17,417 bases of DNA. Source: Vairimorpha apis BRL 01 (lineage: Eukaryota > Microsporidia > Nosematidae). Numbering within the stretch: position 1 is the stretch's first letter; every line of letters starts with the position of its first letter. The notes below the pieces were generated by a model that was given only the letters and a program-made list of their open reading frames with translations, did not search any database and was not told where the DNA came from. The translations under genes were made by a program, and so were the position numbers. The DNA is taken from the NCBI GenBank assembly GCA_000447185.1, contig KE647095.1, forward strand, positions 1 through 17,417, read 5' to 3'. This document shows positions 1-17,417 of this stretch, one piece after another.

Positions 1-1078
1 AGATTTTTTAAAAAATTTAAACTTTTTAAAATGAAACTATAAATAATAAATAAATTAATAATTTATTAATGCTTACTTCTAAAGTAATAATTATGTTCTT
101 ATATTGATTTTACATGTTTTTTTGTATTTTAACTTTTAATTAATTAAACAATTTAAAACTTCATAAATATTTTTATAAGTATTATAATTTAATCTTTAAT
201 AATTTTGACATGTTTTTTTTTGTATTTGGAATTTTAATTAATATTAAAATCTTGTACCTTATAAATTTTTAAGTCAAAAATACAGTTTAATCTTTAATAC
301 ATTTCGTACATTTTTTTTGTATTTTGTATTTTAATTAATATTAAAGTCTTATATTTCAGTATGATTTTAGTCAAAATTACTATTTAATCGTTAATACTTT
401 TTAAAATGTTTTGATATAATTAATAGTTTTTTGATAAATTTCAATAAACACGCATTACTTGTTATTTATTATTTTTAATTTATCTTTATACAGAATTATT
501 TAAACAAGTTTTTTCAAAATTTTATTTAATTTTACTTATTATATTAATAACTCTTTAGTATTTGTGATAAAAACTGCAAATTTTATTATTTACAATTACT
601 GCTTTAGGTAGAACCTTTTTAATTTTTTTATAAATATAATAAACATATACCATTTTTTATATACTGTTTGTGTTTATATTAATATTATTTAATATTAAAA
701 AAAATCTTACATAAATTTTAATAAATGTAAATACTTCGATAAAATTTTAGATGGAATCAAAACATAAATTTTCTTAATTATAACTTAACTTGTACACTTT
801 TTTTATAAATATTTATTATATTTATTTGTTTTTATGATATCATATTTTTCGACATGTATCTTTATGTTGTAAAGAAACATTTATCTATAATTTAATTTTT
901 ACAAAAATAAAATTATAAATCTTTAAATGAATAATTGTTTTATAAATATACTAATGTGGAGATTTATACTATCAATATATTTATATTTTATTTATATATA
1001 ATATATGAATTTTAAATTTTTTTACTATAACATAATATTTCAAAATTATAATTAAGAAAATAGAAAATGTTATAAAAA
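1..1078. other. Gene-free AT-rich stretch
   Basis: I see no open reading frame with protein-like composition on either strand and no RNA gene. Runs of A and T dominate and stop codons occur every few codons in all frames. The only structure I can support is the diverged tandem repeat at 105-396, which is listed separately. Confidence 0.7.
105..396. repeat. Three diverged tandem copies of a unit of about 96-100 bp
   Basis: The copies run about 105-201, 202-299 and 300-396. Each begins with an ACAT plus T-run plus GTATTT core (112, 208 and 308), continues with a TTTTAATTAAT element, and ends with a TTTAATC(T/G)TTAATA element. The spacing between cores is 96 and then 100 bases. The copies differ by many substitutions and small indels, so the duplication is old. 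A possible fourth copy after 396 is too degraded to count. There is no coding potential. Confidence 0.6.
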
Positions 1079-1709: not shown

Positions 1710-1816
1710 TTAAAAATAACTGTCCATTGAATTAGTAGATAAATACTTTTTGTTATCGTTCTTATCCTTTTTTCCTTTTTTATATTGTTTAAAAATTAAA
1801 TAAACAATATAAAAAA
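1710..1816 (-). other. Probable hidden C-terminal tail of the repeat protein
   Basis: The repeat protein stops at a TAG at 1817-1819, in the middle of a hydrophobic segment. If the six-base run at 1819-1824 had one more base (or the ribosome slipped -1), reading would continue in a new frame to a TAA at 1710-1712. That tail first completes a membrane segment (about LVFYIVYLIF) and then gives a short Lys-rich hydrophilic end of about 25 residues. A hydrophobic helix followed by a positive tail is the usual form of a single-pass membrane protein. The joined protein would be about 716 residues. This is inference from composition; no homolog was used. Confidence 0.55.
1776..1816. repeat. Perfect 16-bp inverted repeat with a 9-base loop
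   Basis: The arm at 1776-1791 (TTTTTTATATTGTTTA) is the exact reverse complement of 1801-1816, with nine A/T bases between. In the direction of the minus-strand gene this hairpin begins immediately after the TAG stop and the T6 run. It could be a 3'-end structure of that gene, part of the hidden coding tail, or by position a stimulator of frameshifting. It consists almost only of A-T pairs, so the RNA hairpin would be weak for its length. Confidence 0.7.
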
Positions 1817-3859
1817 CTAAAAAACAAAACCTCCTAATATCAGAAAAACAAATGCTTCGGTCATTAAAACTGTTGTTTTATTTAAAACAAGTTTGTTTGT
1901 AGGATTTAAATCCGTTAAGTTGTCTTTAAAAATTAAATTTTCACTAAAGAATGAAGAATCAGTTTCAAAACTATTATTAATTAATTTTTCTGTCAAATGA
2001 ATAGTTTCATTTTTAGAAAAATTGGATTTATCAAAATCATTGATATTAATTTGATTTTTATCAGTAATATTTAGATTTTCTTTTTCAATATCTAAATTTA
2101 AGTAATTAAAACTATCATTTACCATTTTAAAATTGTTATCTAGATAATCAATATTTATATTAATATCATCACTACTTAGATTATTCGAATTATTATTTTC
2201 TTCATCTGTATTAGAATTAATATCATCACTACTTAGATTATTCGAATTATTATTTTCTTCATCTGTATTAGAATTAATATCATCACTACTTAGATTATTC
2301 GAATTATTATTTTCTTCATCTGTATTAGAATTAATATTATCACTAATTAGATTATTCGAATTATTATTTTCTTCATCTGTATTAGAATTAATATCATCAC
2401 TATTTAAATTATTCGAATTATTATTTTCTTCATCCGTATTTATATTAATATTATCACTAATTAGATTATTCGAATTATTATTTTCTTCATCTGTATTAGA
2501 ATTAATATTATCACTAATTAGATTATTCGAATTATTATTTTCTTCATCTGTATTAGAATTAATATCATCACTATTTAAATTATTCGAATTATTATTTTCT
2601 TCATCCGTATTAGAATTAATATTATCACTAATTAGATTATTCGAATTATTATTTTCTTCATCCGTATTTATATTAATATTTTTAGTATCAAAATCATCTA
2701 CCTTGTTATTTTTTTCATCAAATCTTTCATTTATATTATCACTACCTAAATAAAAAGGATCAAAATTTTCTTCACTATTTAAATATATTAAATTGACGTC
2801 TTCTTTAATATCATTAAAATCTGTTGAAACATCTTTGTTTTTAACGTTTTTTTCATTATTAGAATTAATTTTTTCAATGTCAGTATCAACATTAGAAACA
2901 TTTATTTTTTCCTTAACATAATGGTTTTCATTATTATAATTTAAATCAATTAATAAATTATTTTCTTTGTCAATATTAAAATTTTCTTGATCAACAATTA
3001 AATCAATAGAATTAGTATTTAAATTTTCATTATTATTTGAAACATTATATTTTTGTTTAGTTAGAATATTATTTTTAATATCATCAGTTTTTATGTCTAA
3101 CTCATAATTCTTTACATCAGATAAATTCTTACCGATATTTATTGTATTCATATTTAAAGTGTTTTCTTTTTTATTATTATTACTTTCTGTAAAATAACCA
3201 ATAATTTCAGTTTTTACTATTTTTTTGGTATTATTTTCTAAATATATTTCCTTGTCATGCTCAGAAATATTATCTTTTTCATTTGAAAAACCTTCATTAA
3301 GTGTTAATGGTTTCTGTAAAGTAGGTATAAAATTACAATACAAAGCTTTATTTTCAGAATAATTAAAATCATTTTTTGAACTTAATATATAATCTGGTAC
3401 AAAATGAATCCATTCCTTTGGAATATCATTTTTAAATTCATTAAATATTTGTTCTAAAACATTTTCATCATTTTTATTATAATTAGGGTCAATCCATTTA
3501 TATTCTACAATAGCACCTGGACAAATAGCTGTAATTTCTTCTTTCGCTGTTTTTATATACTCTAAATCTTTAAATTTTATTCGTCCTAATTTCATTGTAA
3601 AATAACGTACTAAAAACCTATAATATCTATTAATATCCATATTATAAAAACATCTATTAAATGTGTTACCTGAAAATTTTTTCATTTTAAAATAATTATT
3701 ATTCTCACCTTTATCATAAATGAATATAGGATTGTTTTTGAATTTTACATTATTCTTAAAATTAACTATTTTATCTATACAGTCAAAAATTTCTTTACAT
3801 GAAATTGCTTCTACATATTTTAAATTTATGATTTGTTCTGATTGTGAATCAAAGGACAT
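1817..3859 (-). CDS. Asn/Asp-rich repeat protein with C-terminal membrane segment
   Basis: I do not recognise a family. The 680-residue frame begins MSFDSQSEQ. No signal peptide is visible. Residues 1 to about 165 look like a folded domain of mixed composition with aromatic residues (WIDPNY, KEWIHFVPDY). From there on the protein is low-complexity and rich in Asn, Asp, Glu and Ile. Residues about 389-559 hold nine near-identical 19-residue units built on (S/N)xDxINSNTDEENNNSNNL. Residues about 659-680 are hydrophobic and end abruptly at a stop, probably because of a frame break at 1819-1824 (see 1710-1816). The layout, a small N-terminal domain, a long acidic disordered spacer and a membrane anchor, would suit a surface or spore-membrane protein, but that is inference. 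A CC motif lies six bases before the ATG. Confidence 0.75.
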   Translation of the reverse strand: MSFDSQSEQIINLKYVEAISCKEIFDCIDKIVNFKNNVKFKNNPIFIYDKGENNNYFKMKKFSGNTFNRCFYNMDINRYYRFLVRYFTMKLGRIKFKDLEYIKTAKEEITAICPGAIVEYKWIDPNYNKNDENVLEQIFNEFKNDIPKEWIHFVPDYILSSKNDFNYSENKALYCNFIPTLQKPLTLNEGFSNEKDNISEHDKEIYLENNTKKIVKTEIIGYFTESNNNKKENTLNMNTINIGKNLSDVKNYELDIKTDDIKNNILTKQKYNVSNNNENLNTNSIDLIVDQENFNIDKENNLLIDLNYNNENHYVKEKINVSNVDTDIEKINSNNEKNVKNKDVSTDFNDIKEDVNLIYLNSEENFDPFYLGSDNINERFDEKNNKVDDFDTKNININTDEENNNSNNLISDNINSNTDEENNNSNNLNSDDINSNTDEENNNSNNLISDNINSNTDEENNNSNNLISDNININTDEENNNSNNLNSDDINSNTDEENNNSNNLISDNINSNTDEENNNSNNLSSDDINSNTDEENNNSNNLSSDDINSNTDEENNNSNNLSSDDININIDYLDNNFKMVNDSFNYLNLDIEKENLNITDKNQININDFDKSNFSKNETIHLTEKLINNSFETDSSFFSENLIFKDNLTDLNPTNKLVLNKTTVLMTEAFVFLILGGFVF
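2183..2695 (-). repeat. Nine 57-bp coding tandem repeats
   Basis: Copies start at 2183, 2240, 2297, 2354, 2411, 2468, 2525, 2582 and 2639 (each at ATTCGAATTATT on the plus strand), exactly 57 bp apart, so the reading frame is kept. Each encodes 19 residues containing TDEENNNSNNL. A partial tenth unit flanks the array. Linker variants (ISDN, NSDD, SSDD; INS or INI) follow a pattern: one run of variants appears twice, and three SSDD units adjoin each other at the C-terminal side. This suggests block duplication and recent copying. The DNA identity between units is far higher than selection on protein alone would need. Confidence 0.95.
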
Positions 3860-4849
3860 AAATTGGATATAATTTTGTTTATATACATGTTATTTAATTA
3901 ATAATAAAATTGCGTATACATATAAATTAATTATTATTTTTAATTAAAACTATTAAAATTAAATTTATGTTTATATTAAACATTTTAATTATAATTTAAA
4001 GAAATTTATTTTGTTTTATAAAAATATTTTTTAAGATTCTAATATAAATTTTAAAATATCAATTAAAATAAACATTTTTATAGATTATATTCATTTGTTT
4101 AAACTTTTAGTAATTTAATTTATATTAAAAATATTTTTAAGATACTAATTGTTAAGATCGATTCTTTTACTTTAATTGTAACAACACTTTAAATTTTTTA
4201 AATTTTAATATATTTTAGCAATTTTAATATATTTTGTAAATTTTCCTAAATATTAATTTTAAATTAAATTTAATGTTATTTTTATAATAATAACTGAGTT
4301 AAATATTATAAGTTTTCAAAAAACAATCTAATTATATTTTTATAATACTCACTTTAACATTATTATATAAAATTTAAGAAAACTATTATAATTTTAATAA
4401 TATATATTAATTAATTCTATTAATTATGATGTTAATTAATTTTTTATATTTCCTGGTATTATATTATTTGAAACAAAAATTATTCTGTATTTAATATTAA
4501 ACAGTTTTTATTAGTGTTCTTTTTTGCTATAAGATGTAAGTTAATTTCTAGTTTTTTATTTTATAGTACTTAATTTTTTACAATTGATCTAATTTAAAAA
4601 TATAAAAAATTTTGAAATTAAATTATACTATGTATAATTGTTTTCTTTATTTTTAAATTCCAAAAAATACTTTTTTTCAAAATGTAATTGATTTTTTAAA
4701 AATAATAATAATGAGAACTTATGTATATAAATGATTTATAAAAAATTTATAATATTATTATTAATATAAATTTATAAAAGAAAAATATTTATTAGGGTAT
4801 AGTGTTTTTTAATAATTTATATATTGTCACAAGTAGATATAGGGCGACT
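3860..4849. other. Gene-free AT-rich stretch
   Basis: It holds the upstream region of the repeat-protein gene and then featureless A/T sequence with stops in all frames. A GGG near 4793 is not followed, on the other strand, by any usable start codon. I see nothing else in it. Confidence 0.65.
3865..3866 (-). promoter_or_regulatory. CC start-site motif of the repeat-protein gene
   Basis: On the coding strand the sequence reads ATCCAATTTATG, so CC lies five bases before the ATG. It is a weak form of the CCC motif seen at other starts in this window and supports the start at 3859. Confidence 0.4.
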
Positions 4850-5050
4850 TTAGCATTTATGTGATTCCAAATTTTCTAACTCAATAACCTCCTGTTCACC
4901 TTCCGTAATATACTTGCCTCTTCGGGCTTCCATAGAGAGACTCTCTAGGGTCATCTAATCACTCTGGCTTGTACGTATGCCTGTGTTCGGATGTCTATAT
5001 TTAGCACATTCCTATATTGTTTGTGGAAAGTTGTTACTATTCCCTCTCAT
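4850..5050 (-). mobile_element. Decayed retroelement fragment B, the best preserved
   Basis: This island is clearly GC-richer than its flanks. Read on the minus strand from about 5046 it gives EGIVTTFHKQYRNVLN and runs on to QAYVQARVI. A one-base loss at about 4955 follows, and the next frame continues TLESLSMEARRGKY to a natural stop at 4850-4852. The codons where fragment A has TWD here read as Lys, a stop and Glu, so the element is mutated. The pattern GIVTxFHxxY, then (A)YVQxxV(I), then TLESxSxExRRG agrees with my memory of the C-terminal end of microsporidian LINE-type reverse transcriptases. Only the last 65 or so codons remain, as expected of a 5'-truncated or mostly eroded copy. Confidence 0.65.
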
Positions 5051-5344
5051 TTAATATAAATTCATATAACTATTTTATTATACAAATTATATAAATCCAT
5101 TATTTATTTTTAATATTGATTTTTGATTCAATACATTTGCTTACATCTTTGTAATATAGATTAAATAATCATAATGTCTTTTGCTGTAATATATAATTAA
5201 ATTTAACAACATTTTTAATAAAAAAAATAAATTATTTTTTAATTTATCCATTGATAAATAATATTTTCTTGAAATCAGATAAATGTTTTATCAATATTAT
5301 CAAGATTTATTTTCTATAAATATGTTATCATTCTAAAAAAAATA
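5051..5344. other. Upstream region of the LRR gene
   Basis: This is AT-rich sequence with no gene. A 9-bp inverted repeat (ATTGATAAA at 5250-5258 and its complement at 5287-5295) lies about 50 bases before the start codon; whether it means anything is unknown. Unlike most genes here, no CCC or CC motif lies next to the ATG. Confidence 0.5.
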
Positions 5345-6238
5345 ATGTTCTTGAAAGAATTATTTTTTTATATATTTTTTAATTTTTTTATTGTATCAGC
5401 AGCAAACTTTGAAATATATAAATTTAATAAATTGGATAAAAAAGAAACTTTTGAATTTACAATAAGAGGTAGATTGTATAATAGAATTGGATTAGATATA
5501 CAATATTTCATTAATATTACATGTATTCGAATTGAAAATACTAATATCGATAATCTACCGAATGAATTTTCTTATTTGAAAAATCTTAAATGTCTTTTTT
5601 TGTACAAAAATAAATTCATAAAACTTCCAATAGTTATTGGAAAACTTTTCAGTTTGAAAGAACTAAATATAAATGAGCCACTATTACAAGAAATTCGAAT
5701 GAATATAGCACAATTGTGTGATTTAAAAGAATTATACATTACTGCAAAAAATAACGTTGAAATGCCAAATATTTTTCATCGTTTAATTACTCTTCGAAAA
5801 CTTTTTTTATATAAAGTAAATTTGACAAAATTATATGATTTTTCAAAATGCAAAAATCTTGTTGAAATGAATTTAATTGATAATAATTTGAAACATTTTC
5901 CTATATCAATTACTAAACTCAAAAATTTGCAGCAATTATGCATAATAAAAAATAATTTAAATAAATTGCCCAATAGCATAAGTCGTTTACAGAAACTTCA
6001 ATATTTATTTTTACATAACACTAGTTTAAAAAATATTCCAGAAAAAATGGGAACTATGAAAAATTTAATTGTTTTATCGTTAAAAAACAATTTAATTAAA
6101 TCTTTACCACTATTAATGTCAAATTTGCAAGATACTTTATTTAAATTAGATTTGATTGGCAATAAAATAAAGAATAGACCCGTTTCTTATACTTGTAAAA
6201 TTGGTACAGCAAAAATCAAGTTTAAAAAAATATTATAA
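5345..6238 (+). CDS. Secreted leucine-rich repeat (LRR) protein
   Basis: The 297-residue protein starts with a signal peptide: a Lys/Glu pair, then a Phe/Ile/Leu-rich core and SAANF at about residues 18-22. Nine to ten LRRs of 22-24 residues cover about residues 58-285, with the pattern LPxxIxxLxxLxxLxLxxNxL; clear units begin at IDNLPNEFSYL, FIKLPIVIGKL, LKHFPISITKL, LNKLPNSISRL and LKNIPEKMGTM. The short tail after the last repeat is basic. LRRs form curved solenoids that bind proteins. Microsporidia carry families of secreted LRR proteins thought to act at the spore or host interface; the target of this one is unknown. There is no membrane segment after the signal peptide and no frame break. 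It stands alone: the nearest gene on either side is more than 1.4 kb away, and a retroelement remnant lies about 300 bp upstream. Confidence 0.85.
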   Translation: MFLKELFFYIFFNFFIVSAANFEIYKFNKLDKKETFEFTIRGRLYNRIGLDIQYFINITCIRIENTNIDNLPNEFSYLKNLKCLFLYKNKFIKLPIVIGKLFSLKELNINEPLLQEIRMNIAQLCDLKELYITAKNNVEMPNIFHRLITLRKLFLYKVNLTKLYDFSKCKNLVEMNLIDNNLKHFPISITKLKNLQQLCIIKNNLNKLPNSISRLQKLQYLFLHNTSLKNIPEKMGTMKNLIVLSLKNNLIKSLPLLMSNLQDTLFKLDLIGNKIKNRPVSYTCKIGTAKIKFKKIL

Positions 6239-9200
6239 TTAATTTTAAAAAAACTTCAAATGGTCAGAAAAAATTATATAAACAAGATTTAAAAAAATAT
6301 TTAAAAACAAAATTTATTTTTTTAATTTTTTATATCAAAAAACAAGATAAGAAAATTGATTAAAAAATATTAATGCATTAAAAAATCTTAGCCTTCTATA
6401 ATTTCCATATACTTAAAATATATTATCTTTAAATATTTTATTTATGTTTAAAATAAAAAAATTACTTGTTGTGAAGAAACAATATGATAATAACTGTTAT
6501 AATTTATAAAAAGTTAATATATCAAAATCATTTTTTTAAATTATTAAACTAAATTTTAGTATTAATATTTAATTGAAGAAAACATTTTTTTTTGTTTAAA
6601 ACTACAAAACAAAATAATATACTATTTTAAGTTATTTAAAGTAAAAAAATTAAAGATTGATGATTATTTTCTAGTTGAATTAATTTAAATTTTTAAGTAA
6701 TTAAAATATGAATACTATTCATTTTTACTTTTATGTATGACATTCTTTGAATTGTATTAAAATAAAATAAAATAAAATTTTATTTTTTGAATATTATTTT
6801 TAACAATTCACATGTTTAACATTTTTAACTTAATTAGTTTTAAATAGATGTAAACTATAATTTTTGCTTACTTTATAAAAATTACATATTAAAGAACTTT
6901 AGAATCAAGTAATTTATATAAATTATAATAATTTATACTTTTTTATTTAAATATATTTTAAATGAAAATGCAAACTTTGATAGTTTTGATACAAAAAAAA
7001 GAGCTAATTATTTAAATAAACATATCTTTTAATAATGACAAAAATAAGTATTTTTTAAAAAAGCAAAACTATTTCTATTATGACATATTTATATAAGATT
7101 TAAATCAATTATTCTATTAATTTTTAATTACATTTTTACGAAGTCTTTAAAAAGAAAGAAAAATCGAAAGATTGTTAAAGAAAATTTTTAAAATATTGTA
7201 AATATTTCATATTTAAAGTTTATAAAAGATTTAAAATTTTAAAAATTTTATAGTCTATCAGTGATGTTTTAAAAGCACTAACAATTTTTTAATATTAGTA
7301 AACATACAAAATTTTTATGTTTATTTTTGAGATCAGAAAAATAAATTTTTTTTGATTTAAATTATAATAGAACTTTAAATGATTAAACATATTATTGTTT
7401 ACACATTTTTTTTAAAAATAACTTTCAAAAATTTTTAAAATATTTTAAAATACAGCTTCTTATTAAAAAAACATTTATTTATTTGTTGAAATGTATTGTA
7501 ACAAATAAAAAAATTTAAGAAATAACAGAAAAATAGTAAAAAAATAATTTTTTTAAAATTTTATATAAATTAAAACCATAAAAGTAAGATAATTTTAAAA
7601 GAAACCACCAAGTACTAAAAATTTACTAAAGTAAAATAGTTTGAACATTTTTTATATCAATATTATTGCAAGTATAATAAAGTCATGCAAAGATAACTAA
7701 TTTTAAAAAGTTACAATCAATTATTAAGTTTTGACTTAATTATGTGAAAAAATTGGACTATAAATATATACATCTTTTATTATCATAAAAAATTTAAATA
7801 TAAGGATTAAAAACTTTTTAGAAATAATTTTATAATAAATTATAAAATATGTCATAGATTATAAATTTAAAATGGTGTTTTAATACATTTTATTAATAAT
7901 AACATCTTAAATATTATTGTATTGAATAAAATGAAATAAATTAATTTAATTTTACAGTTTTTTATAATTTAATTTAAAATTGTTAATAATAAATTTGGTC
8001 TTTTAAAATACCATAAATATTTTATATAAAATAATTTAATCGGACGATAAGCATTCAAGTAATTTTACATTTAAAAAATAATATATTTCAAAAAGCTAGA
8101 AATTTATGTAAACTTAAAAAAGTATTTTTTAATAATAAAAAAAATTCAAATACGTCTTAAATTTTTTTAAAACATAAAAATGGCATTTAAAAAAATTGCC
8201 ATGATATTTCATAGAATAATAAAATTTTAATAAAAACTATTGATAATAATTTCAAATCTTATTCAATACAAAAGAAATTTTTTTTTAATATATATGAATT
8301 ACAATAATATAAACTAATCTAAATTTGTAATTTTTGTAAATTACACTACTATAAACTAAAATTTAAATTTATATGTGAAATTTATAAATTTTTTTGATAA
8401 AAATAATTAATTATAATAATACTTTTGTACATATACAAAAAAGATAAAAACTTTTTTTACAAAAGATATTTTTTATTTTTTGTTTGTTTTAGATGCATTT
8501 TATGTTTAAGAAAAAATTATACAATCAACAAAAGTTATTTATATTTTATTTAATTATAATCTTAATAAAGGTTAAAATTACAATCAGATTATAAAAATTC
8601 TAAAAAAATATATTAATATTTTTATAAGAATTTAAAAAACTAACTTTTTAAGTAATTTAAAGTTAAAAAGAGATAAATATAAAGCTAATAATAAAATAAT
8701 TTAATATGATCAAATTTAAGCTGGTAGGTAATTTTTAAAAAAAAGTAATTGTTTATCAATTTCGATGTTACATTCTAATTTGTTAATTAATTTATAAATT
8801 TAATAATTTTAAAATTGCATTTTATTTGACAAAATATCATTTACAGTTATTAAAAATTAAAAATAATATAATATCAATATTATTTTTGTTTTATTTTAAG
8901 TCATGACATATTTTTGATGCATTTCATAGTATTTATTACATCTTGAAATTTTTTTGTTATTACACTGTAATAATTCCAAAAGGTTTCTAATAATCCGATA
9001 AATGTAATTTAATACTTCATCTAAATAGCATTATATAGTTAAAATTTTTTATTCTAAACTTTTTAAATTGTTACTTAAATTTATAGTGTCAAAATATTTA
9101 TCACTATATGAAAATTAAATTTTTTTTAATCATCATATTTACACAAGAAACAATTCCATTAAATTAATTTGAATTTTTATTTAAAATTTATTAAAGCATA

Positions 9201-9442
9201 TATTTATTAAAGTAATTATTTGCTTAAAATTTTATGAATAAAAGTTTTTATTTATATAGAAAAAATATTTTTTAAATAATTACTAAAGAGTTTTTAATAT
9301 TCCTACTGCGCAAAATAACTTTATTTATATATTAAAATTTACAATATATTTTTTTAAATAAATTTTACATTTTAAATTTAAATATTTTTTAATGTTATTA
9401 AACAAATATAGTTAAATATTTTAAAAAAATTTATTATTAAAT
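6239..9442. other. Large gene-free desert of about 3.2 kb
   Basis: I find no protein-like frame, no RNA gene and no GC-richer island. By eye I find no CCC or GGG triplet anywhere in it, in contrast to gene starts in this window. Its long A and T runs and the stops in every frame make hidden frameshifted genes unlikely, though a very small one cannot be excluded. Confidence 0.65.
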
Positions 9443-9853
9443 TTAATATATTCTTATGCTTCGTTTTTTATCATATTTTCTTTTATATGCATAATACGTC
9501 GATTTAAATAAAAAATAAATTCCAAAAAATACAAATGTAAAAAATAAAAACATAAACGTGACAACAAAATTATACTGTTTTGAAAGATGCATTTCTGAAT
9601 ATGTAGTCTGCTCTATTAAATTATCATTATTAATATTATTATTGTCTAATGCAATAAAATTGTAAAAATATTTCAATTTTTCTTGAATTTTAAATAATTT
9701 TTCGTTTTTCAGATATTTTTTATATATTTTAATTTTATTAATTTTTTTAAAATCATTAAATTTTTTGACATTTAAAGCTTTTAAATTTCTATTTAATCTT
9801 ATTATGTTCGAGTCAAAATCATCTTCAATTTTGTCATGAACAGATTTTTGCAT
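9443..9853 (-). CDS. C-terminal piece: charged helix plus membrane segment
   Basis: This is the 136-residue frame of the split gene above. Its own ATG is probably an internal Met of the joined protein, since the upstream frame is open and protein-like. Residues 1-65 are rich in Lys, Asp and Asn and probably helical. Residues about 95-117 are a membrane segment made mostly of Phe, Val and Leu. The last 18 residues are strongly basic (YKRKYDKKRSIR). A helix before a C-terminal anchor is also the general form of SNARE proteins, but I see no convincing SNARE layer pattern and do not claim it. Confidence 0.6.
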   Translation of the reverse strand: MQKSVHDKIEDDFDSNIIRLNRNLKALNVKKFNDFKKINKIKIYKKYLKNEKLFKIQEKLKYFYNFIALDNNNINNDNLIEQTTYSEMHLSKQYNFVVTFMFLFFTFVFFGIYFLFKSTYYAYKRKYDKKRSIRIY

Positions 9854-10281
9854 TCTATTAAAACGTTGCTCATTTTTTAATTCTGCAAAAAAATTAAAAA
9901 TTGGACAATTAATATAGTTACTTGATTTTAATTTTTTAAAAATTGTTCATTTTTTATTAGTTTTGGATAGCAACACTCATAGAAATTACTTAAAATTTGA
10001 AAGTATTTATTTTCTTCGATTTGTGTGTCACATGAAAAGACCAACTCAGATTGATTTGCATTTTTTAATATTTTAAATTTTTGGTTATTTTTAAAATTGC
10101 TAAACAAAGACAAATGATCATCACAACAATTATAGATATTACTTATTTGTATAATTAGACTGACACAATTTAAAATATTCCTACAAAGCATATACTCACC
10201 CATTAAATTTGTGTCATGTGTATCAAATATAAAATAATCACATTGTTTTGATATCAAATTATAACTTTCCTTATATTTCAT
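9443..10281 (-). CDS. Unrecognised single-pass membrane protein, split by one frame break
   Basis: Two adjacent minus-strand frames (9928-10281 and 9443-9853) are best read as one gene. The first stops at a TAA (9928-9930) just after a T6 run at 9932-9937 (A6 on the coding strand). One more base there lets the frame run without a stop through the 74-bp gap, including the stretch CPIFNFFAELKNEQRFNRM, into the second frame. The joined protein has about 279 residues: a Cys-rich N-terminal half, a Lys-rich helical middle, one membrane segment and a basic tail. With no signal peptide and a single C-terminal membrane segment it could be tail-anchored with its bulk in the cytosol. I do not recognise the family. 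The coding strand has ATCCGCAATATG at the start, a weak C motif. Confidence 0.65.
9928..10281 (-). CDS. N-terminal piece: Cys-rich domain
   Basis: The 117-residue frame begins MKYKESYNLISKQ. It contains nine Cys residues, some paired (NCCDD, YECCY), and hydrophobic stretches around residues 35-50 too short and mixed to be sure membrane segments. The spacing of the Cys residues does not match a zinc finger that I know. It ends at a frame break in a homopolymer and continues in the piece at 9443-9853. Confidence 0.6.
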   Translation of the reverse strand: MKYKESYNLISKQCDYFIFDTHDTNLMGEYMLCRNILNCVSLIIQISNIYNCCDDHLSLFSNFKNNQKFKILKNANQSELVFSCDTQIEENKYFQILSNFYECCYPKLIKNEQFLKN

Positions 10282-10286
10282 ATTGC

Positions 10287-10288
10287 GG
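10287..10288 (-). promoter_or_regulatory. CC start-site motif of the split membrane-protein gene
   Basis: The coding strand reads TTATCCGCAATATG, placing CC five bases before the ATG. It is a weaker variant of the CCC signal and supports the start at 10281. Confidence 0.35.
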
Positions 10289-10461
10289 ATAATAAAATTA
10301 CTTTTGTAATAATTAATTAATTAATTTGTTATCAATTAATCAAACATTTTAATTAAAACTAAACAAAATGTTGCTTAAAAAAATTAGTAAAATGACAAAT
10401 ATATACAATATATACAATTAATATTATTTTTTATCATTTAAAAATCTTACATATTCATTTT

Positions 10462-10497
10462 AAATATTATAAATATTATAAATATTATAAATATTAT
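10462..10497. repeat. Short tandem repeat, four copies of 9 bp
   Basis: The unit AAATATTAT is repeated exactly four times. It is non-coding and typical of slippage in AT-rich DNA. Confidence 0.9.
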
Positions 10498-11280
10498 TTA
10501 TTTTCATATTGAATAAAATATATAACTGACTTTAATTATTATTAAAATTGTAAAATTATATCTGTTATTTATTTTATTATTTTTCATATAGAAATTTTTA
10601 TTTCTATAAAATGAAAAAAAAATTTTATAACAATAGACTTGTGCTTCATTTATAAGAAAATATATTTAATGTTATTGTTGAAATTAATTTTAAAATCAAG
10701 TTTTTAATAATATTGTAAAACAAAAATTTAAAATTATTAAATAAATCTATAATTAATTAACATTTACAATTTAGAAATAGTTAAATTTTTATGATTACAT
10801 TTCTTTTGATATTTGATTAGATTTTTTTAAAAATTGATTATTTTAAATTTACATTTGTTCAAAAAAATTAAAATCAATAATATATATTATAATATTTAAT
10901 ATGTCAAATTTTTTTAAACTTATTTTGAAATTTTTTTTATATTTCCAATATTATAAAAATTTATCATTGTAACTTTTAAAATTAAATCTATAAACAGTTT
11001 TGTGTCCTAATATAAAAAATTAAATTAATTATTATTAAATAAAATAAAGATTTTCTTAAAAATGTAGATTAAAAGGTATGTAGTAAAAATATTACAAATA
11101 GATCTGTTTCTCACACTAGATTTTTTATCTTTTCAAAAAAATGAGTTTTAATTTTATTTAAAAGATTTTTATAATCATAGTACATTTTTATTTTTCTTTT
11201 TTAAAACTTTTTAATAAAATTGTTTATTAGCGAGTAAATTTTATAATCTCATGTATTTATGATAGTATTAGCTTTGGACA

Positions 11281-11547
11281 AACATTAGATTGCTGATCTG
11301 CAATAGCGGCTTCTGCTATCTTCCTCATATTGAGTACTCCATAGAAATGCTCTTAAGAATATTCTTAAGATTCACAGATAGAATGTACGTTTCAGTTCGG
11401 TTGATGGTATCAAGTTACTTTCTGTGTTTAGAATGATATTTGCTACTAATCCATCCCATATCAACACATATGTGATAATTTTTCTCTTATATACATGTAT
11501 CAATCCCATTTCATTTGCAAGTTCATCAAATTTCCTAAATTTTTTTG
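11281..11547 (-). mobile_element. Decayed retroelement fragment C
   Basis: On the minus strand the frame from about 11547 reads KFDELANEMGLIHVYK, then a VLIWDGLV segment corresponding to the TWDG motif of the other copies, and stops at 11372-11374. In another frame 11331-11369 encodes LKNILKSISMEYS, matching TLESLSMEARRG of fragment B. A further frame below it (YEEDSRSRYC) may be the next part. The order of motifs is the same as in fragments A and B, and this copy extends further upstream (ELANEMG) than they do. At least two frameshifts and stops show that it is dead. Relation to a LINE-type reverse transcriptase is from memory and is not shown by the sequence. Confidence 0.6.
11351..11370. 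repeat. 20-bp perfect palindrome
   Basis: TCTTAAGAAT is followed directly by its own reverse complement with no spacer. It lies inside retroelement fragment C, where it also encodes the remnant LKNILK, so it may be chance or a small local duplication. Confidence 0.7.
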
Positions 11548-11659
11548 ACTCGAATTGATTTTAGTAGTCGAGTTATGTAAAACCTATTTTTACAATAAGC
11601 AGTTTTTTTACATATATATATACATTTATCTATAATTATTTTTTTTAAAATTTTTAAAT

Positions 11660-11662
11660 CCC
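11660..11662 (+). promoter_or_regulatory. CCC start-site motif of the MED10-like gene
   Basis: AAATCCCATATG places CCC two bases before the ATG. An AAATTT-like stretch precedes it. Both agree with signals described at microsporidian gene starts, and they fix the start at 11665. Confidence 0.65.
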
Positions 11663-11664
11663 AT

Positions 11665-12015
11665 ATGAAAGCTTATATAAAAAATAACAAGTTAAGATTT
11701 AAATCACCTGTTTTATCATGTATATACAAATTAAATAAAATTCAAAATGCAATTGAAGACAAAAATAATGATAAATTTCCTTATGAAGAAATTCAAGATT
11801 TTATTTATGATTGTAAAAAAATAATTGAAGAAACAGAAAATATTGAAATTCCATTAGATTATATTGAACATATCAATAAAAATAAAGAAGCTTTAAATTA
11901 TTTTGAAAGTAAAAATTTAAAATCTAAAAATAAGGAGGATATTGTAAATAAACAAAAAGATGTTTTTAATAAATTTAAAAATGGAATAAAAGATTTTTTA
12001 GATTTATTAGAATGA
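11665..12015 (+). CDS. MED10: Mediator complex subunit 10-like protein
   Basis: The product (116 residues) is close in size to the core of MED10/Nut2, a subunit of the Mediator middle module that links activators to RNA polymerase II. The N-terminal half is a pair of predicted helices (about residues 18-58). The family signature is then recognisable: IPLDYIEHINKNKEALNYF at about 62-80 fits the IPLxVIxYIDxGxNPDxYT motif, and the last helix (KQKDVFNKFKNGIKDFL) fits the family pattern NxxxKGKxxAFxxFRDxL. The Gly and Pro of the NP turn are missing, so it is a divergent member. It lies 136 bp upstream of the Isd11-like gene on the same strand, and each has its own CCC motif, so they are separate transcription units. 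The identification is by motif memory; I am fairly but not fully sure. Confidence 0.6.
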   Translation: MKAYIKNNKLRFKSPVLSCIYKLNKIQNAIEDKNNDKFPYEEIQDFIYDCKKIIEETENIEIPLDYIEHINKNKEALNYFESKNLKSKNKEDIVNKQKDVFNKFKNGIKDFLDLLE

Positions 12016-12143
12016 ATTTTGATGTGAAAATAACTAATATAAATTGTTTTTAATAAAATATTTACAATTTTATATTTAAAAAAATTTAACAAACATTTAT
12101 TTTTTTATTAATTTCAGTTTAAATTTTTTATGCATATTATAAA

Positions 12144-12146
12144 CCC
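12144..12146 (+). promoter_or_regulatory. CCC start-site motif of the Isd11-like gene
   Basis: AAACCCTATAAATG places CCC five bases before the ATG at 12152, and it decides this start for a very short gene. Confidence 0.65.
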
Positions 12147-12151
12147 TATAA

Positions 12152-12394
12152 ATGTTACCAATAGTAAAACAATCATTTAATGAATTAATGAATATTGTTT
12201 CAAAGTTTAAATCACCTGCATATAAAGAATTTTTTAAAAGAAAAGCGATTGAAAATTTTAATGATGTTAAAAATAGTATTAACAGAAAATGTAAGGTGTC
12301 ACAATATTTAGAAAATCAAAAAGACTTAATTGATGTATTAAAAAGACAGACAGTTATTTACAATATGTTTTACGATGAAAAAAGTGGAATATAA
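12152..12394 (+). CDS. ISD11: Isd11-like (LYR-family) mitosomal protein
   Basis: The 80-residue protein has the size and pattern of Isd11 (LYRM4), the small helical protein that stabilises the cysteine desulfurase Nfs1 in Fe-S cluster assembly. In microsporidia this pathway works in the mitosome, and an Isd11 is known from the group. Matching features are a three-helix layout, the FxSxAYKEFFKRKAIENF helix in the place of the FxxYNxRxYAxRRIxxxF helix, and the C-terminal LKRQTVIYNMFY in the place of the family's xRRQxxIxxLY end. The N-terminal LYR tripeptide is not conserved (FNEL lies there), which is seen in divergent members. No cleavable targeting peptide is visible. An AATAAA overlaps the stop codon. 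The convergent neighbour gene ends only 14 bp away if its last frame break is accepted. Confidence 0.55.
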   Translation: MLPIVKQSFNELMNIVSKFKSPAYKEFFKRKAIENFNDVKNSINRKCKVSQYLENQKDLIDVLKRQTVIYNMFYDEKSGI

Positions 12395-12408
12395 TAAATC
12401 TTTTATTT

Positions 12409-14058
12409 TTAGTACAATGACTTTACGATGTTTGATAAATTTAAAATAGTTAAAGTTTCAGCTTTATCTGAGGATTCATAATTTTTAATAATTTTTTCCA
12501 AAGTAGATTTTGATGGTGTATAAATAGTTTCATTTTTAATAAAAAAACTTGGTTATTAACTAGAATAAATTTACTATTGCTTATGTTACCGATTTCTGTT
12601 TTAGCAGGAGATTTAACAATTTTAAACAATAAATTTCGAATTTTTGATTTATCGTCAATGTTTGATATATTTATGTCAATATCAGAAAATTCACTTTTAT
12701 CTAAAACTTTGTTATTTTTATAAACATCATTGGTTTTTTCTAATTTTTTATTATTTATTGTTAAATCATTATCATTTTCATACACATTTATTTTAATTTT
12801 CTTTACTTCTGATGAAAATTCTGTTTTGTATTGATTTTCATGTTTTTGTTGTGTTTTAGTTAAAATATTATCATGTTCTTCTGATTTTTGTGTATAGTTT
12901 TTTAAGAGTTGTTCAAGTTTTTTCACTTCATTAATTTCATTTAAGATAACATCTCTAAATATATTAGTTGACATATAACAGTTTATTAAAAATTCAAGTA
13001 AATAAATTCGCATTACAATAGTCTCTTCTGTTTCATATGGACTTTTTTTATTAATACATTAAAAAAAGTCAAAATTGTTTTATTCTGCGAAAATTTATAC
13101 ATATCAAATAATAAATTTCTTACTTTAGTTTTCCAACTTTTCATACCAATCTCATTACCATTAACAATTTCATCAGAAGGAAAATCTTCAGAGATTGAAT
13201 CCATAACAGACTTTATATTTGTTATTAAACATTCAAATCCAATGTTTTTCTTTTCTTTCAATAAATTTTCTATTAAAAATCCATGTACATAACCTATAAT
13301 TTCACTTAAATATTGTTGCTCTTTAAACTGACGAAGAAGGTTAAAAACATTGAGATTTCCATATATTTTATTAAAACAAAAATTCATCATAAATGAATAT
13401 ATCCTAAGTAATTTAATTGTTGTCTCAAAATCCAATTCAGGTATTTTAAAAATTTCAGACAATGAAATATTATTTATAATATCTTTAAATGTTTTATATG
13501 CAGGTTTATGTTCTTTAGGTTTTTTAGAAAAATTTATTTCATTTTCTGAATCTTGATGTGAATTTTTTACCACTAAATCATTAGCATCTATATTAATTCT
13601 TTCCTTGTTTTTGTGTAGAACAATAGATTCTTTTTTTTGAATTGTATTTTTATTTTTTAATTCTTCTTCTATATTATTTAACATTTGAAGATAAGTTATA
13701 ATATTATCTTTTGTAGTCATATGACGAAAATACCTTTTTTTAATAATCTGAATCCAAAGGGAGTTATATAAGTAATAAGTTTTAAAAAATCAAAAATTAT
13801 TGTTTGATCAATCTTATATTTACGCATCAAATCTTTATATCTACATCTTATTTTTTTATTACAACTCACTATACTATATTGATCATTTAAAATTTTATAA
13901 ATCATACCTTCTTTGTTGTTGTAAATAATTTCTTCATATAATAAATATTTATTTTTAAGATTTGAATATAACATAAAACTTAGTTTGTTTATGTCAATGT
14001 TGACGTATTTTATGTAATTTTTTAAAATAAATAATCGAATAGAACTATCATTTATCAT
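12409..14058 (-). CDS. DDT/WHIM-domain chromatin-remodelling subunit, broken into three frames
   Basis: Three overlapping minus-strand frames (13717-14058, 13013-13720, 12450-13013) form one gene of about 550 residues. The overlaps are 4 bases and 1 base, and each junction follows a T7 run (13735-13741 and 13043-13049). One extra base in each run joins the frames without stops. A third break is likely at the A7 run 12541-12547; with it the gene ends at 12409-12411 with an acidic and Lys-rich tail instead of an out-of-frame one. The joined protein has a DDT domain, then a WHIM-like segment that spans the second junction, then a coiled-coil and disordered tail. This order is that of ISWI accessory subunits (Acf1/Itc1 type), which direct nucleosome sliding. 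A CCC motif precedes the ATG. The family call rests on hydrophobic patterns, so it is moderate; the single-gene reading is more certain. Confidence 0.6.
12450..13013 (-). CDS. C-terminal piece of the DDT/WHIM protein
   Basis: This is a 187-residue frame. Its first 25 or so residues (RIYLLEFLINCYMSTNIFRDVI) fit the second half of a WHIM motif, in which a Leu-rich helix precedes an (S)xxxRxxI element; the preceding half lies in the frame at 13013-13720. A charged coiled-coil region follows (about residues 25-65), then an Asn/Asp/Lys-rich linker and a more structured part from about residue 125 (SKIRNLLFKIVKSPAKTEIG). The last 30 residues (Trp, His and Met present, KIMNPQIKLKL) look out of frame; a one-base change at 12541-12547 gives a more natural tail ending at 12409. 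The apparent ATG at 13013 is probably an internal Met. Confidence 0.55.
   Translation of the reverse strand: MRIYLLEFLINCYMSTNIFRDVILNEINEVKKLEQLLKNYTQKSEEHDNILTKTQQKHENQYKTEFSSEVKKIKINVYENDNDLTINNKKLEKTNDVYKNNKVLDKSEFSDIDINISNIDDKSKIRNLLFKIVKSPAKTEIGNISNSKFILVNNQVFLLKMKLFIHHQNLLWKKLLKIMNPQIKLKL
13013..13720 (-). CDS. Middle piece: DDT domain and start of WHIM
   Basis: This is a 235-residue frame. Residues 1-95 are a charged linker. Residues about 98-157 fit a DDT domain: TIKLLRIYSFMMNFCFNKI matches the first Leu-x-x-x-x-x-Phe helix, NVFNLLRQF the second helix, and IIGYVHGFLIENLLKE the last helix with its conserved His-x-x-Leu-Leu pattern. From residue 196 (WKTKVRNLLFDMYKF) a WHIM-like Trp-containing segment begins and runs over the frame break at 13043-13049. 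DDT domains bind DNA or help the ISWI ATPase on nucleosomes. The ATG at 13718-13720 overlaps the stop of the upstream frame (ATGA), which in a eukaryote is better explained by a frame break than by a separate gene. Confidence 0.55.
   Translation of the reverse strand: MTTKDNIITYLQMLNNIEEELKNKNTIQKKESIVLHKNKERINIDANDLVVKNSHQDSENEINFSKKPKEHKPAYKTFKDIINNISLSEIFKIPELDFETTIKLLRIYSFMMNFCFNKIYGNLNVFNLLRQFKEQQYLSEIIGYVHGFLIENLLKEKKNIGFECLITNIKSVMDSISEDFPSDEIVNGNEIGMKSWKTKVRNLLFDMYKFSQNKTILTFFNVLIKKVHMKQKRLL
13717..14058 (-). CDS. N-terminal piece of the DDT/WHIM protein
   Basis: This 113-residue frame begins MINDSSIRLF, preceded by CCC, which makes it the true start of the gene. Residues about 35-100 contain a small beta-rich stretch (EGMIYKILNDQYSIVSC) followed by a basic patch (KKIRCRYKDLMRKYKI) and a helix. 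A similar order, a short beta segment, an L(R)RK element and an FxK helix, occurs near the N terminus of some Acf1/Itc1-type proteins; I offer that only as a possibility. The frame ends six residues after LLKK at the T7 run 13735-13741. Confidence 0.5.
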   Translation of the reverse strand: MINDSSIRLFILKNYIKYVNIDINKLSFMLYSNLKNKYLLYEEIIYNNKEGMIYKILNDQYSIVSCNKKIRCRYKDLMRKYKIDQTIIFDFLKLITYITPFGFRLLKKGIFVI

Positions 14059-15156
14059 TTTTAGGGTAGAAATTATGTTTAAATGTACAAAAAAAATAAT
14101 TTGATAAAATTAATTAAAATATTAAATAATGAGATATGAATTTATTATAACATTTAAAAATCTTTAAATTTTATCTTTATGATATCAGACTTTTTAATCT
14201 TACAATTTTTCTAGAATAGTATTAAATAAAGTTTATTTAAAATTATTTTATTAAAATATTTAAATTTTGATTTATCTTGTAATTAATGTACAAAAATATG
14301 TCATTTACAATATAATACAAATATTTCATAACTTATAAAATTTTAAATAATAAATCGAATTTTTTTAATAAAAATATTTTTGTAAAAGATGTTTGTTTAT
14401 TAAAAAATAAATTATTTTTTTATTTTATATAAAAAAAAATAAAAAATTTAGATTATCAAGAATTGAAACTTAATAATAATTATGATTGTTTTTAATTTAG
14501 TATTTTTATTATAAACAAAACAATCAAAGTATTTAATTACCTCATTTAAATAATAAAATGTTGATTTAAATTTTGATCAAGTATTTTTTTGAGTATAAAA
14601 TTCGCAATTTATTTAATATCTTTTAAATTATTATTCAATTAATATAATTTTTAATAATACATTGAATTGATAAAATATGAAATATATTAAGGTTTTAATA
14701 TATGTTGATTGATGAAAAATTTTTTATTTGAAATTTTAAAGTAAAAAGAATAGATCTTAAGTATTAAAATTAAAATTTTTTTATTTTAAATATAACATTT
14801 ACCTATAATATAAAACAAAAATATATTATTATCGTTATTTATATTTTTTAAAAAAATTTAACATTAATAAAGTACAAAATTTAATATTAAATACAATTAT
14901 CTCAAAAAAATTATTAATAATTTAAAATGAGTATTATTTATGAAATAAAATAAAACTTAAAATATATAATTCTAAATTTTTACATAATTCAATGTTTTAC
15001 ATAATGTTTTAATAAAATTTAATTCATATTAATTTAAAATAAAAATATTATTATACCTTGATTTTTAAGGTTTTATTCTATGGACATTTTAAATAAAACA
15101 AATTTTATAATAAAAAGGTATGCTTTTTTAACCTATAAATGTTTAATTAAATAACA
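14059..15156. other. Gene-free AT-rich stretch
   Basis: Apart from the CCC motif at its left end, I see no coding signal, RNA gene or GC-richer island. It separates the upstream end of the DDT/WHIM gene from the 3' end of the cullin gene. Confidence 0.65.
14064..14066 (-). promoter_or_regulatory. CCC start-site motif of the DDT/WHIM gene
   Basis: The coding strand reads CTACCCTAAAAATG, with CCC five bases before the ATG at 14058. The two inner pieces of this gene have no such motif, which supports reading all three as one gene. Confidence 0.6.
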
Positions 15157-16917
15157 TTAAGGAATATATTCAATATTTGCATCATATAATTTTAAAAAAC
15201 CTTTTTTTCTAAATCTTGCAATCTTGTTGTCAACATATTCATATCAACTTTAAAATCCTTACACAATTCGATTTTTAATAAATTTATTTCAAATGTTTTT
15301 TTGTATTTCATAATTTTCATAATTTTGGAATCCAACTTTTCATTTTTTGAAGATCCTGTTTCCATAATTTTATTTCGAAATATTTTTTTAGTTTGATGAT
15401 TATCAGGTAAAAAATTTGTAATATCACAATTTTTATTTATAATATATTCATTATTCTGAAATATTATTAAATTCTTTTCGATTAAAACATGCATGTGATT
15501 TTCATAAACATAATTTAATTTTTTTGTAATTTATTATCCAATATTTTTTTTATAATGTCATATTGTAAAAAACTTAGCGTAATATTTTTAGAAAAAAGTT
15601 CAACTTCAACACTACTTAAAGAATTCATCCATATTATTCTTTTTTTTCATTACGCAACATTTTTTCTTGATAAGTATTTCTTATTTCATTAAATTCTTCT
15701 AAGTCACAATCTTCATTTATAAATTCAACCCACTGAAACTTTTTTAATAACATAATTTCATAATTATTAATAATATTTCTTTGTCTGAAATCTTCTAGTA
15801 TATTTTGTAATTTATAAACATATACAAAATCTGTATTGTTTTTAATTGTTTCAATAAATCTATCTTCTTCATCTAAATTGACATTTTTGGAGTTTATTAA
15901 TCTTAAACATAACTTTTCTCTAAGTTGAAGTTCAAATTGTTCTTCTTGATTTATGATACTAAATAAAAAGCCAACAAATTCATAATATAAAAGGTTGTTA
16001 TTTTGAATAACATTAGTATCAATATTGTTAGAACTAATATTACATTTTTTGTCAATATCGTAATAATTATTCTTTATTGCTATATCTAAATTTCTTACTA
16101 TTTTATCATACTTAACTTCCATTTTAACAAAAAATTCGTAGAAAATTTTTTTTGTCATATTTTCATAATTTTTATATTCTTTAAACATATCAAACAACAT
16201 ATCGATATCATCAAAATTCTTATATTTTATGTTAATAAATTCATTTACAATATTTTTATATCTATTATAATTAAATTTGAATATTTCTTCTAAAATAATA
16301 AATTTTTTATTATAAATTCCATCTATAAAAATATGATTTTCGAATTTAGTAGAAATTTCTTTTAATATCATATCTTTGAGACTATCATATTTTATGGGAA
16401 TTTTTTTTAATATATTTTCAATATCATAAATAGAATTTAAATTCATTGATAAAATTTTTCTTGTAATTTGATCATAAAGCAATTGTTTACAAGAAAAATT
16501 ATAAAAATTTAAAAGTTCTTCTACTTTTAAAAAATATTCTTCTTTATAGTTATGTAAAAATTTTTCTGAAACTTCAAAAAACATAGTTGTTTGATTTAAA
16601 ATTAATTTTCGTTTAAAAATAGAATAAATTTTTTTCTTAACACTACTAATTTTATCTTCATTTCTAAATATTTTAAAAAAAATATCAAACATTTCTTCAA
16701 GCCATTTATGTTCATTATAAATATCATCAATACTAATATTTATGTTATTTAAACGTTTCTTAACTAATTTTTTTACAATATCTTTAACACTTGAAAAATA
16801 TTTTTTTGATGTTGAATGTTTGCTTGAAATCAAATAAATTTTATGATACGGGATTATAAATTTTGAAGCAAAATAACTATTAATAAAATCTTTTGTTAAC
16901 TTGTAATCATTTGACAT
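15157..16917 (-). CDS. Cullin, scaffold of a ubiquitin ligase, with three frame breaks
   Basis: One gene of about 587 residues is spread over several minus-strand frames. Breaks lie at T8 15640-15647, T7 15519-15525 and A6 15194-15199; each is repaired by one extra base. The first join recovers KKRIIWMNSLSS, the counterpart of the family's GRKLxWxxxLG segment. The stretch between the first two breaks is a winged-helix part (ELFSKNITLSFLQYDIIKKI). The third adds an 11-residue C-terminal end, so the protein ends at 15157-15159 as cullins do, shortly after the last helix. Cullins carry RING protein Rbx1 at this end and a substrate adaptor at the other. At 587 residues it is shorter than the usual 750 or so, typical of microsporidian shrinkage. 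Which cullin (CUL1 or CUL3 type) I cannot say. CCCC precedes the start. Confidence 0.85.
15192..15494 (-). CDS. C-terminal piece of the cullin: neddylation domain
   Basis: This 100-residue frame is not a separate gene. Residues 1-25 (HVLIEKNLIIFQNNEYIIN) are the end of the second winged helix. Residues about 54-98 are the Nedd8 domain: LDSKIMKIMKYKKTF matches the family's IVRIMKxRKxL, and the Lys of the second IMK is in the place of the Nedd8-acceptor Lys. Then LLKIELCKDFKVDMNMLTTR fits the pattern LxxEVxxxLxFxVxxxxIKKR, and LEKKVF fits LIEREYL. The frame stops at 15192-15194 just after an A6 run; one more base extends it to 15157. Confidence 0.8.
   Translation of the reverse strand: MHVLIEKNLIIFQNNEYIINKNCDITNFLPDNHQTKKIFRNKIMETGSSKNEKLDSKIMKIMKYKKTFEINLLKIELCKDFKVDMNMLTTRLQDLEKKVF
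15634..16917 (-). CDS. N-terminal and middle piece of the cullin
   Basis: This is a 427-residue frame. Residues 1 to about 270 are helical cullin repeats with little sequence conservation, as is usual for the adaptor-binding arm. The cullin homology region starts at about residue 320: FELQLREKLCLRLINSKN fits FxxxYRKxLAxRLL, EEDRFIETIKNNTDF fits xExxxIxxLKxxCGxxF, and YKLQNILEDFRQ fits the KLexMxxDixxS helix. FQWVEF is in the place of the WP element. The frame ends in a poly-A run on the coding strand at 15640-15647, just before the conserved W segment. The start ATG is 4 bases after CCCC. Confidence 0.85.
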   Translation of the reverse strand: MSNDYKLTKDFINSYFASKFIIPYHKIYLISSKHSTSKKYFSSVKDIVKKLVKKRLNNINISIDDIYNEHKWLEEMFDIFFKIFRNEDKISSVKKKIYSIFKRKLILNQTTMFFEVSEKFLHNYKEEYFLKVEELLNFYNFSCKQLLYDQITRKILSMNLNSIYDIENILKKIPIKYDSLKDMILKEISTKFENHIFIDGIYNKKFIILEEIFKFNYNRYKNIVNEFINIKYKNFDDIDMLFDMFKEYKNYENMTKKIFYEFFVKMEVKYDKIVRNLDIAIKNNYYDIDKKCNISSNNIDTNVIQNNNLLYYEFVGFLFSIINQEEQFELQLREKLCLRLINSKNVNLDEEDRFIETIKNNTDFVYVYKLQNILEDFRQRNIINNYEIMLLKKFQWVEFINEDCDLEEFNEIRNTYQEKMLRNEKKE

Positions 16918-17417
16918 AAAAGGGGTTGTGATATTTTTTTAGACGTATTTTATACAAAATTAAAGATAAACCAATTTTCAGTATTACAAAATTCTATCAA
17001 AAATACTTTTATAATGTATTTAAATGCAAGAACTAATATATAGATTTTTTAAATTTATTTGCATTTTTTATTTAACATTTTATGTTTAAAAAAAAGTTTT
17101 AAGATTCATACAATATATGCACTTTTGTAATGCAAAAAAAAATAAATTCTGCTTTATTAAATTTAAATATAATAAATAAATTTAAATTACAATAAAAAAA
17201 AGCAATTTTATTAATAAAATAACTTTAAATAGATATTAATTTATTTTAATATTATGTTATATTTCTTATTTAAAAATACAACTTTATATTTTTTATATTT
17301 GGAATTTGAAGTACAAATAAAGTCAATTTCATTATGATAATATATATTAAAAAAGTTAAATGTGATAAATAAAATATTTAATTTTATTGTTTTTTAACTT
17401 ACAAAGATTTATACTAC
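16918..17417. other. Upstream region of the cullin gene, otherwise gene-free
   Basis: Apart from the CCCC motif next to the start codon, I see only AT-rich sequence with stops in all frames up to the end of the window. Confidence 0.6.
16922..16925 (-). promoter_or_regulatory. CCCC start-site motif of the cullin gene
   Basis: The coding strand reads CACAACCCCTTTTATG, with CCCC four bases before the ATG at 16917. This is the strongest copy of the motif in the window. Confidence 0.65.

What the first reader, a model, noticed from the sequence alone, without database searches (positions are those of the whole stretch)
1710..16917. Eight frame breaks, all one base short in an A/T run
Breaks at 1819-1824, 9932-9937, 12541-12547, 13043-13049, 13735-13741, 15194-15199, 15519-15525 and 15640-15647 all lie in runs of 6-8 A or T, and each is repaired by one extra base. 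All are in the four minus-strand genes; the three plus-strand genes are intact. Joined frames have no other stops and regain conserved residues (cullin). Truly dead genes would also show substitutions and stops outside homopolymers, as the retroelement remnants here do. The likely cause is homopolymer undercalling in the assembly. The alternative, slippage by polymerase or ribosome on A/T runs as known from AT-rich endosymbionts, would be notable in a microsporidian.
Basis: partly seen in the sequence, partly recalled or inferred. Interest (0 to 1): 0.8.

Follow-up and report, generated by a model that had tools for sequence, protein, structure and literature searches.

The report
Assembly errors that split intact genes
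Several genes in this AT-rich parasite sequence look broken most likely because the assembly has dropped single bases; near-identical copies of two of them found elsewhere are whole, so this is a sequencing artefact and not a new way of reading genes.

Summary
Protein searches found an intact 587-aa version of the cullin-like gene (P0002) and an intact 550-aa version of the DUF5097 gene (P0005). Each differs from the window by one residue, and their longest contigs are 15.3 and 6.2 kb, too long to be single transcripts. All six breaks in these two genes are absent there; each time the window is one base short. The claim that every break lies in the named run of 6-8 A/T is only partly right. 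Of six testable breaks, three lie at the named run, one fits a neighbouring 7-base run better, and two fit stretches without a long run. The problem is spread over the assembly and both strands: in 16 loci, 41 overlapping ORF pairs are one-base-short type against 12 of the other, and 80% of the 41 hold a run of 6 or more against 21.5% expected. The RNA polymerase I subunit RPA2 and four kinase genes are split the same way. Slippage is not needed. Genes A and B, one break each, were not checked against an intact copy.

The parts
15160..16917 (-). Gene D: cullin-like protein, in the window cut into frames 15637-16938, 15518-15646, 15195-15530 and 15160-15243
   Evidence: Frames. Identity is weak: Pfam Cullin E 0.003 in the first piece, Cullin_Nedd8 E 0.0025 in P0002, both below the curated cut-offs; the Cullin model itself was not listed for P0002. 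Intact 587-aa P0002 traces through all four frames with 1 mismatch.
15640..15648 (-). Break D1: frame switch at the run of 8
   Evidence: Codons without mismatch 15640-15648; run 15640-15647
15519..15526 (-). Break D2: frame switch at the run of 7
   Evidence: Codons without mismatch 15521-15526; run 15519-15525
15201..15209 (-). Break D3: frame switch fits the 7-base run 15202-15208 better than the named run 15194-15199 (by one mismatch)
   Evidence: runs listed
12412..14058 (-). Gene C: DUF5097 (PF17020) protein, in the window cut into frames 13720-14109, 13016-13789, 12453-13058 and 12412-12552
   Evidence: PF17020 E 5.7e-22 in the first piece. Intact 550-aa P0005 traces through all four frames with 1 mismatch. 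Orthologues P0006-P0008 are continuous.
13726..13731 (-). Break C1: frame switch here, longest run 4, rather than in the named run 13735-13741
   Evidence: 0 mismatches here, 2 at the named run; I110 and F111 invariant in four orthologues
13052..13054 (-). Break C2: frame switch beside the named run 13043-13049, longest run 2
   Evidence: 0 mismatches here, 1 at the named run; N337 invariant in four orthologues
12541..12548 (-). Break C3: frame switch at the run of 7
   Evidence: Codons without mismatch 12543-12548; run 12541-12547
9446..10281 (-). Gene B: two frames, 9931-10320 and 9446-9946, overlapping at 9931-9946 (run 9932-9937); unknown protein, one break
   Evidence: ORF overlap only; no intact copy sought
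1713..3859 (-). Gene A: 680-aa Asn-rich repeat protein with a 57-bp tandem repeat; frames 1820-3889 and 1713-1877 overlap by 58 bp, run 1819-1824 at the edge
   Evidence: no intact copy sought
5345..6238 (+). Uninterrupted leucine-rich-repeat gene (comparison, no break seen)
   Evidence: 297 aa, LRR_14 E 1.2e-18
11665..12015 (+). Uninterrupted 116-aa ORF (comparison, no break seen)
   Evidence: CCC upstream of ATG
12152..12394 (+). Uninterrupted 80-aa ORF (comparison, no break seen)
   Evidence: CCC upstream of ATG

Best explanation
The breaks are single-base losses made in sequencing or assembly of a very AT-rich genome (window 16.5% GC), most often but not only in A/T homopolymers. The genes themselves are whole in the organism. 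Shown: intact near-identical copies of both three-break genes, and the same one-base-short pattern in other sampled parts of this assembly, including an essential gene. Inferred: that the loss happened in the reads or consensus (the platform is unknown), and that the breaks in genes A and B have the same cause.
For: P0002 (587 aa; 4 member sequences, 5 contigs, longest 15,323 bp) and P0005 (550 aa; 3 members, 1 contig, 6,197 bp) run through all six breaks with one mismatch each, and all six steps are one base short in the window. Contigs of that length around genes of about 1.7 kb are not single transcripts (inference). In 16 loci (the window plus fifteen 10-kb stretches of the same assembly), 41 of 53 overlapping coding ORF pairs are of the one-base-short type (p 8e-5), on both strands (29 minus, 24 plus). 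Of the 41, 80% hold a run of 6 or more against 21.5% expected. Well-separated ORF pairs show no frame preference (16, 15, 13). The RNA polymerase I subunit RPA2 is split into frames covering residues 101-812 and 898-1113 of the chain 4c2m_B, RPA135, with two one-base-short overlaps between them. Four kinase domains are split into adjacent matches, all four of the one-base-short type.
Against: No raw reads were seen, and the DNA behind P0002 and P0005 was not read, only the proteins. Two of the six testable breaks fit short runs, so homopolymer undercalling alone does not cover all. Many conserved genes are whole (2 of 2 tubulin matches, 2 full-length HSP70 frames, one AAA frame of 797 aa), so the loss is uneven. 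The ORF test is insensitive: at its loosest threshold it caught 2 of the window's 8 breaks, and its low-scoring pairs may include chance ORFs.
Confidence: 0.95

Rival explanations
1. The runs are truly short in the DNA and the full proteins are made by RNA polymerase slippage or ribosomal frameshifting on A/T runs, as reported for AT-rich insect endosymbionts.
For: All six tested breaks have the same sign, and slippage is described for homopolymer frameshifts in Blochmannia and Buchnera (PMC3017870 passages).
Against: Near-identical genes on long contigs are unbroken. In the Blochmannia comparison eight B. vafer genes have such frameshifts and only genes with a single indel are counted as intact, whereas here two genes carry three breaks each. 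Two of six breaks fit short runs better, and the overlap at the second RPA2 break holds no run longer than 5. A library search for microsporidia with transcriptional slippage gave 2 papers and one for ribosomal frameshifting gave 23 (15 listed); none of the listed titles concerns slippage in microsporidian genes.
Confidence: 0.02
2. The genes are truly broken in this isolate (recent pseudogenes) but intact in the isolate behind P0002 and P0005.
For: The two sources are not identical: one residue differs in each protein.
Against: Six one-base losses against two residue changes in 1,137 residues, all losses on one side, and no in-frame stops along the traced frames. The same pattern breaks RPA2, an essential enzyme; the domain search found no second copy, though it also missed the polymerase II and III counterparts, so that is weak. 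Genes C and D have no second full copy in the assembly.
Confidence: 0.02
3. The fragments are separate genes or exons.
For: The larger downstream fragments contain an ATG from which an ORF can be read.
Against: None of the four inner ATGs examined has the upstream CCC that 4 of 7 gene starts have. Four orthologues of gene C are continuous across all three junctions.
Confidence: 0.01

Closest known systems
Frameshift errors in the Nosema ceranae draft genome (PMC2685015; passages seen)
   Same: AT-rich microsporidian with frequent homopolymer runs; [quoted passage not shown]
   Different: Here the platform is unknown; error status rests on independent intact proteins; some losses fit short runs
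Gene-fragmenting errors in long-read assemblies (Kastor, PMC12007338; start of abstract seen in a search listing)
   Same: Frameshifts and premature stops from sequencing error that make genes look like pseudogenes
   Different: That tool is for draft assemblies of small genomes; whether the present assembly is from long reads is unknown
[quoted passage not shown] passages seen)
   Same: AT-rich genome, frame breaks in poly-A/T tracts in genes that otherwise look functional
   Different: Here near-identical copies lack the breaks, there are up to three per gene, and two of six fit no long tract

Membership tests
Assembly homopolymer/indel artefact | An independent sequence of the same locus lacks the breaks | tested here: met
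   P0002 and P0005 pass through 6 of 6 breaks with one mismatch each; the 2 breaks of genes A and B not tested
Assembly homopolymer/indel artefact | Breaks spread over the assembly, both strands, essential genes included | tested here: met
   53 overlaps in 16 loci, 29 minus and 24 plus; RPA2 split; but several conserved genes whole
Assembly homopolymer/indel artefact | All losses lie in homopolymers of 6 or more | tested here: not met
   4 of 6 testable breaks in the window; 80% of 41 one-base-short overlaps hold such a run
Assembly homopolymer/indel artefact | Raw reads show the longer run | not testable with these tools
   No reads available
Transcriptional or ribosomal slippage rescue | The DNA itself is frameshifted | tested here: not met
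   Intact frames on contigs of up to 15.3 and 6.2 kb, for genes C and D of a near-identical isolate
Transcriptional or ribosomal slippage rescue | Break sits in a slippery homopolymer | tested here: not met
   Met by 4 of 6; 2 of 6 testable breaks fit runs of 2 and 4
Transcriptional or ribosomal slippage rescue | Mixed-length transcripts or junction-spanning peptides | not testable with these tools
   No RNA or peptide data
Pseudogene | Other disabling changes and relaxed substitutions | tested here: not met
   One residue change in 587 and one in 550, no in-frame stops along the traced frames; genes A and B not tested

The most novel reading that the evidence does not exclude
A minority of breaks not tested here (gene A at 1819-1824, gene B at 9932-9937, or some of the others in the genome) are real in the DNA and are bypassed by slippage on A/T runs in a microsporidian.
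Probability: 0.03. Interest if true: 0.7.

Novelty: not a real feature. Interest (0 to 1): 0.1.

Why it matters
It is a warning about this assembly. Gene counts, lost functions and pseudogene counts drawn from it will be wrong, since breaks of this kind are spread over the sampled coding sequence and cut even RNA polymerase I. It also gives a reference-free test (the sign bias of ORF overlaps) for spotting such assemblies before anyone claims slippage or gene decay.

Tried and rejected
Slippage, true pseudogenes and separate genes were considered and rejected for the reasons given under the rivals. Second copies were sought in the same genome: for gene D only a 113-base, 75% match, for gene C four matches, all within the window. 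The cullin Pfam model found nothing in the own genome, and none of the 14 control genomes rang either, so that result is uninformative. tRNA and Rfam scans of the window gave nothing. A search for elongation-factor GTPases gave nine matches, one with a stop inside; whether their frames are complete was not judged, and neither were the other partial kinase matches. Literature searches did not identify the genome. The first search with the middle piece of gene C found only the window itself, because candidates are limited to 1.75 times the query's length; one search solved this.

Full report
The window (17,417 bases, 16.5% GC) is contig C45 of a 5.96-Mb, 223-contig assembly. On the minus strand, four genes are each cut into overlapping open frames; the eight overlap intervals are 10 to 100 bases long and each contains or overlaps the named run, but three intervals hold two runs of 6 or more.

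Independent intact copies. A search of 5.8 billion proteins with the first piece of gene D (427 aa; 7,994 candidates scored) returned two proteins: the window's own piece and P0002, 587 aa, 4 member sequences on 5 contigs of up to 15,323 bp, source label 'lgn' (I take this to be the Logan assemblies of public reads; inference). A second search, with words drawn only from the 235-aa middle piece of gene C, returned P0005, 550 aa, contig 6,197 bp, and three more distant orthologues of 541, 503 and 503 aa, all four carrying PF17020. Contigs of 15 and 6 kb around genes of about 1.7 kb are not single transcripts, so the frames are continuous in DNA (inference; the DNA itself was not read). Traced codon by codon against the window, P0002 matches 586 of 587 residues and P0005 549 of 550, and each needs exactly three frame steps, all of the same sign: the window is one base short. 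The name cullin is itself weak: the Cullin and Cullin_Nedd8 matches are below the curated cut-offs, and the Cullin model is not listed for the full P0002.

Where the breaks are. The intact proteins fix the switch points. One fits the neighbouring 7-base run (15201-15209), the named run costing one mismatch more. Two fit outside long runs: 13726-13731, longest run 4 (named run: two mismatches more), and 13052-13054, longest run 2 (named run: one mismatch more) (the coarser intervals agree). The residues that decide the last two are invariant in P0005-P0008 (I110, F111 and N337). A substitution together with a loss in the run could mimic this but needs more changes. So the statement that all breaks lie in runs of 6-8 holds for four of the six testable ones, and for three at the named place.

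Test over the assembly. I fetched twenty 10-kb stretches. Five came wholly or mostly masked and were dropped; with the window this leaves 16 loci. Seven of the fifteen lie on two contigs (C201, C213) and one more on C160, chosen because earlier searches had matches there; the rest were picked by contig number. A codon model trained on ORFs of 220 aa or more gave 53 overlapping same-strand coding ORF pairs in 74 kb of coding core: 41 of the one-base-short type and 12 of the other (p 8e-5), 29 on the minus and 24 on the plus strand. Two-base losses would fall in the second class. Of the 41, 80% contain a run of 6 or more (21.5% expected from random coding stretches of equal length) and 66% a run of 7 or more (7.7% expected). 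Among the 12, 50% contain a run of 6 or more (22.5% expected). Well-separated pairs show no frame preference (16, 15, 13). With stricter thresholds the bias stays (20 to 6 and 12 to 2). The method is insensitive, finding 2 of the window's 8 breaks at the loosest threshold; low-scoring pairs may include chance ORFs. An earlier run with a distance filter gave 38 to 11.

Essential genes. In L007 two frames match RNA polymerase I subunit RPA2 best: the first covers residues 101-812 and the second 898-1113 of RPA135 (4c2m_B), and Pfam domain Rpb2_6 is cut between them. Two one-base-short overlaps lie between them, the second with no run longer than 5. Among 30 kinase matches, four pairs of adjacent matches continue one domain in a shifted frame, all four of the one-base-short type; other partial matches were not examined. 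Against this, 2 of 2 tubulin matches (frames of 439 and 445 aa), two HSP70 frames (701 and 684 aa; a third, partial match was not judged) and one AAA frame of 797 aa are whole, so the losses are uneven. Conserved genes may hold fewer runs; this was not measured.

Mechanism. The best reading is base loss in reads or consensus, mainly in A/T homopolymers. The Nosema ceranae draft (454 reads) reported 58 cases of adjacent ORFs that a single-base frameshift error would join, and named homopolymer runs as prone to sequencing error (PMC2685015, passages). Blochmannia frameshifts that may be rescued by transcriptional slippage are reported as indels in poly-A/T tracts, with only single-indel genes counted as intact (PMC3017870, passages). 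Here there are three breaks in each of two genes, two of six that fit no long run, and intact near-identical copies. The minus-strand restriction in the window is probably chance: 64 of 81 coding runs of 6 or more lie in the minus genes, which gives about 0.15 for eight of eight.

What stays open. Raw reads, RNA and peptides were not available. The organism was not identified. A microsporidian is likely from PF17020 in gene C (family range recalled) and from CCC upstream of 4 of 7 gene starts against 1.2% by chance per 20 bases, but the microsporidian SSU rRNA model found nothing in the assembly (5 of 24 candidates scored).

Noticed in passing
   Followed up: partly
window 4840-5050: A second more G+C-rich island, by eye similar in kind to the one at 11240-11600; not compared.
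   Followed up: no
window 2159-2679: A 57-base tandem repeat, 9.1 copies, 94% matches, in gene A: a 19-aa Asn/Ser/Asp-rich repeat.
   Followed up: no
upstream of window 11665, 12152, 14058, 16917: CCC within 20 bases upstream of the ATG in 4 of 7 gene starts and in 0 of 4 inner ATGs; resembles the C-triplet start motif described for Nosema ceranae.
   Followed up: partly
L007:3042-6222: The only Rpb2 domain-6 matches reported in the assembly belong to RPA2 of RNA polymerase I; the counterparts for polymerases II and III were not found in that search, so the assembly, its unmasked part or the search may be incomplete.
   Followed up: no
window 111-401: A tandem array of about 97 bases, 3 copies, at the left end of the contig.
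   Followed up: no
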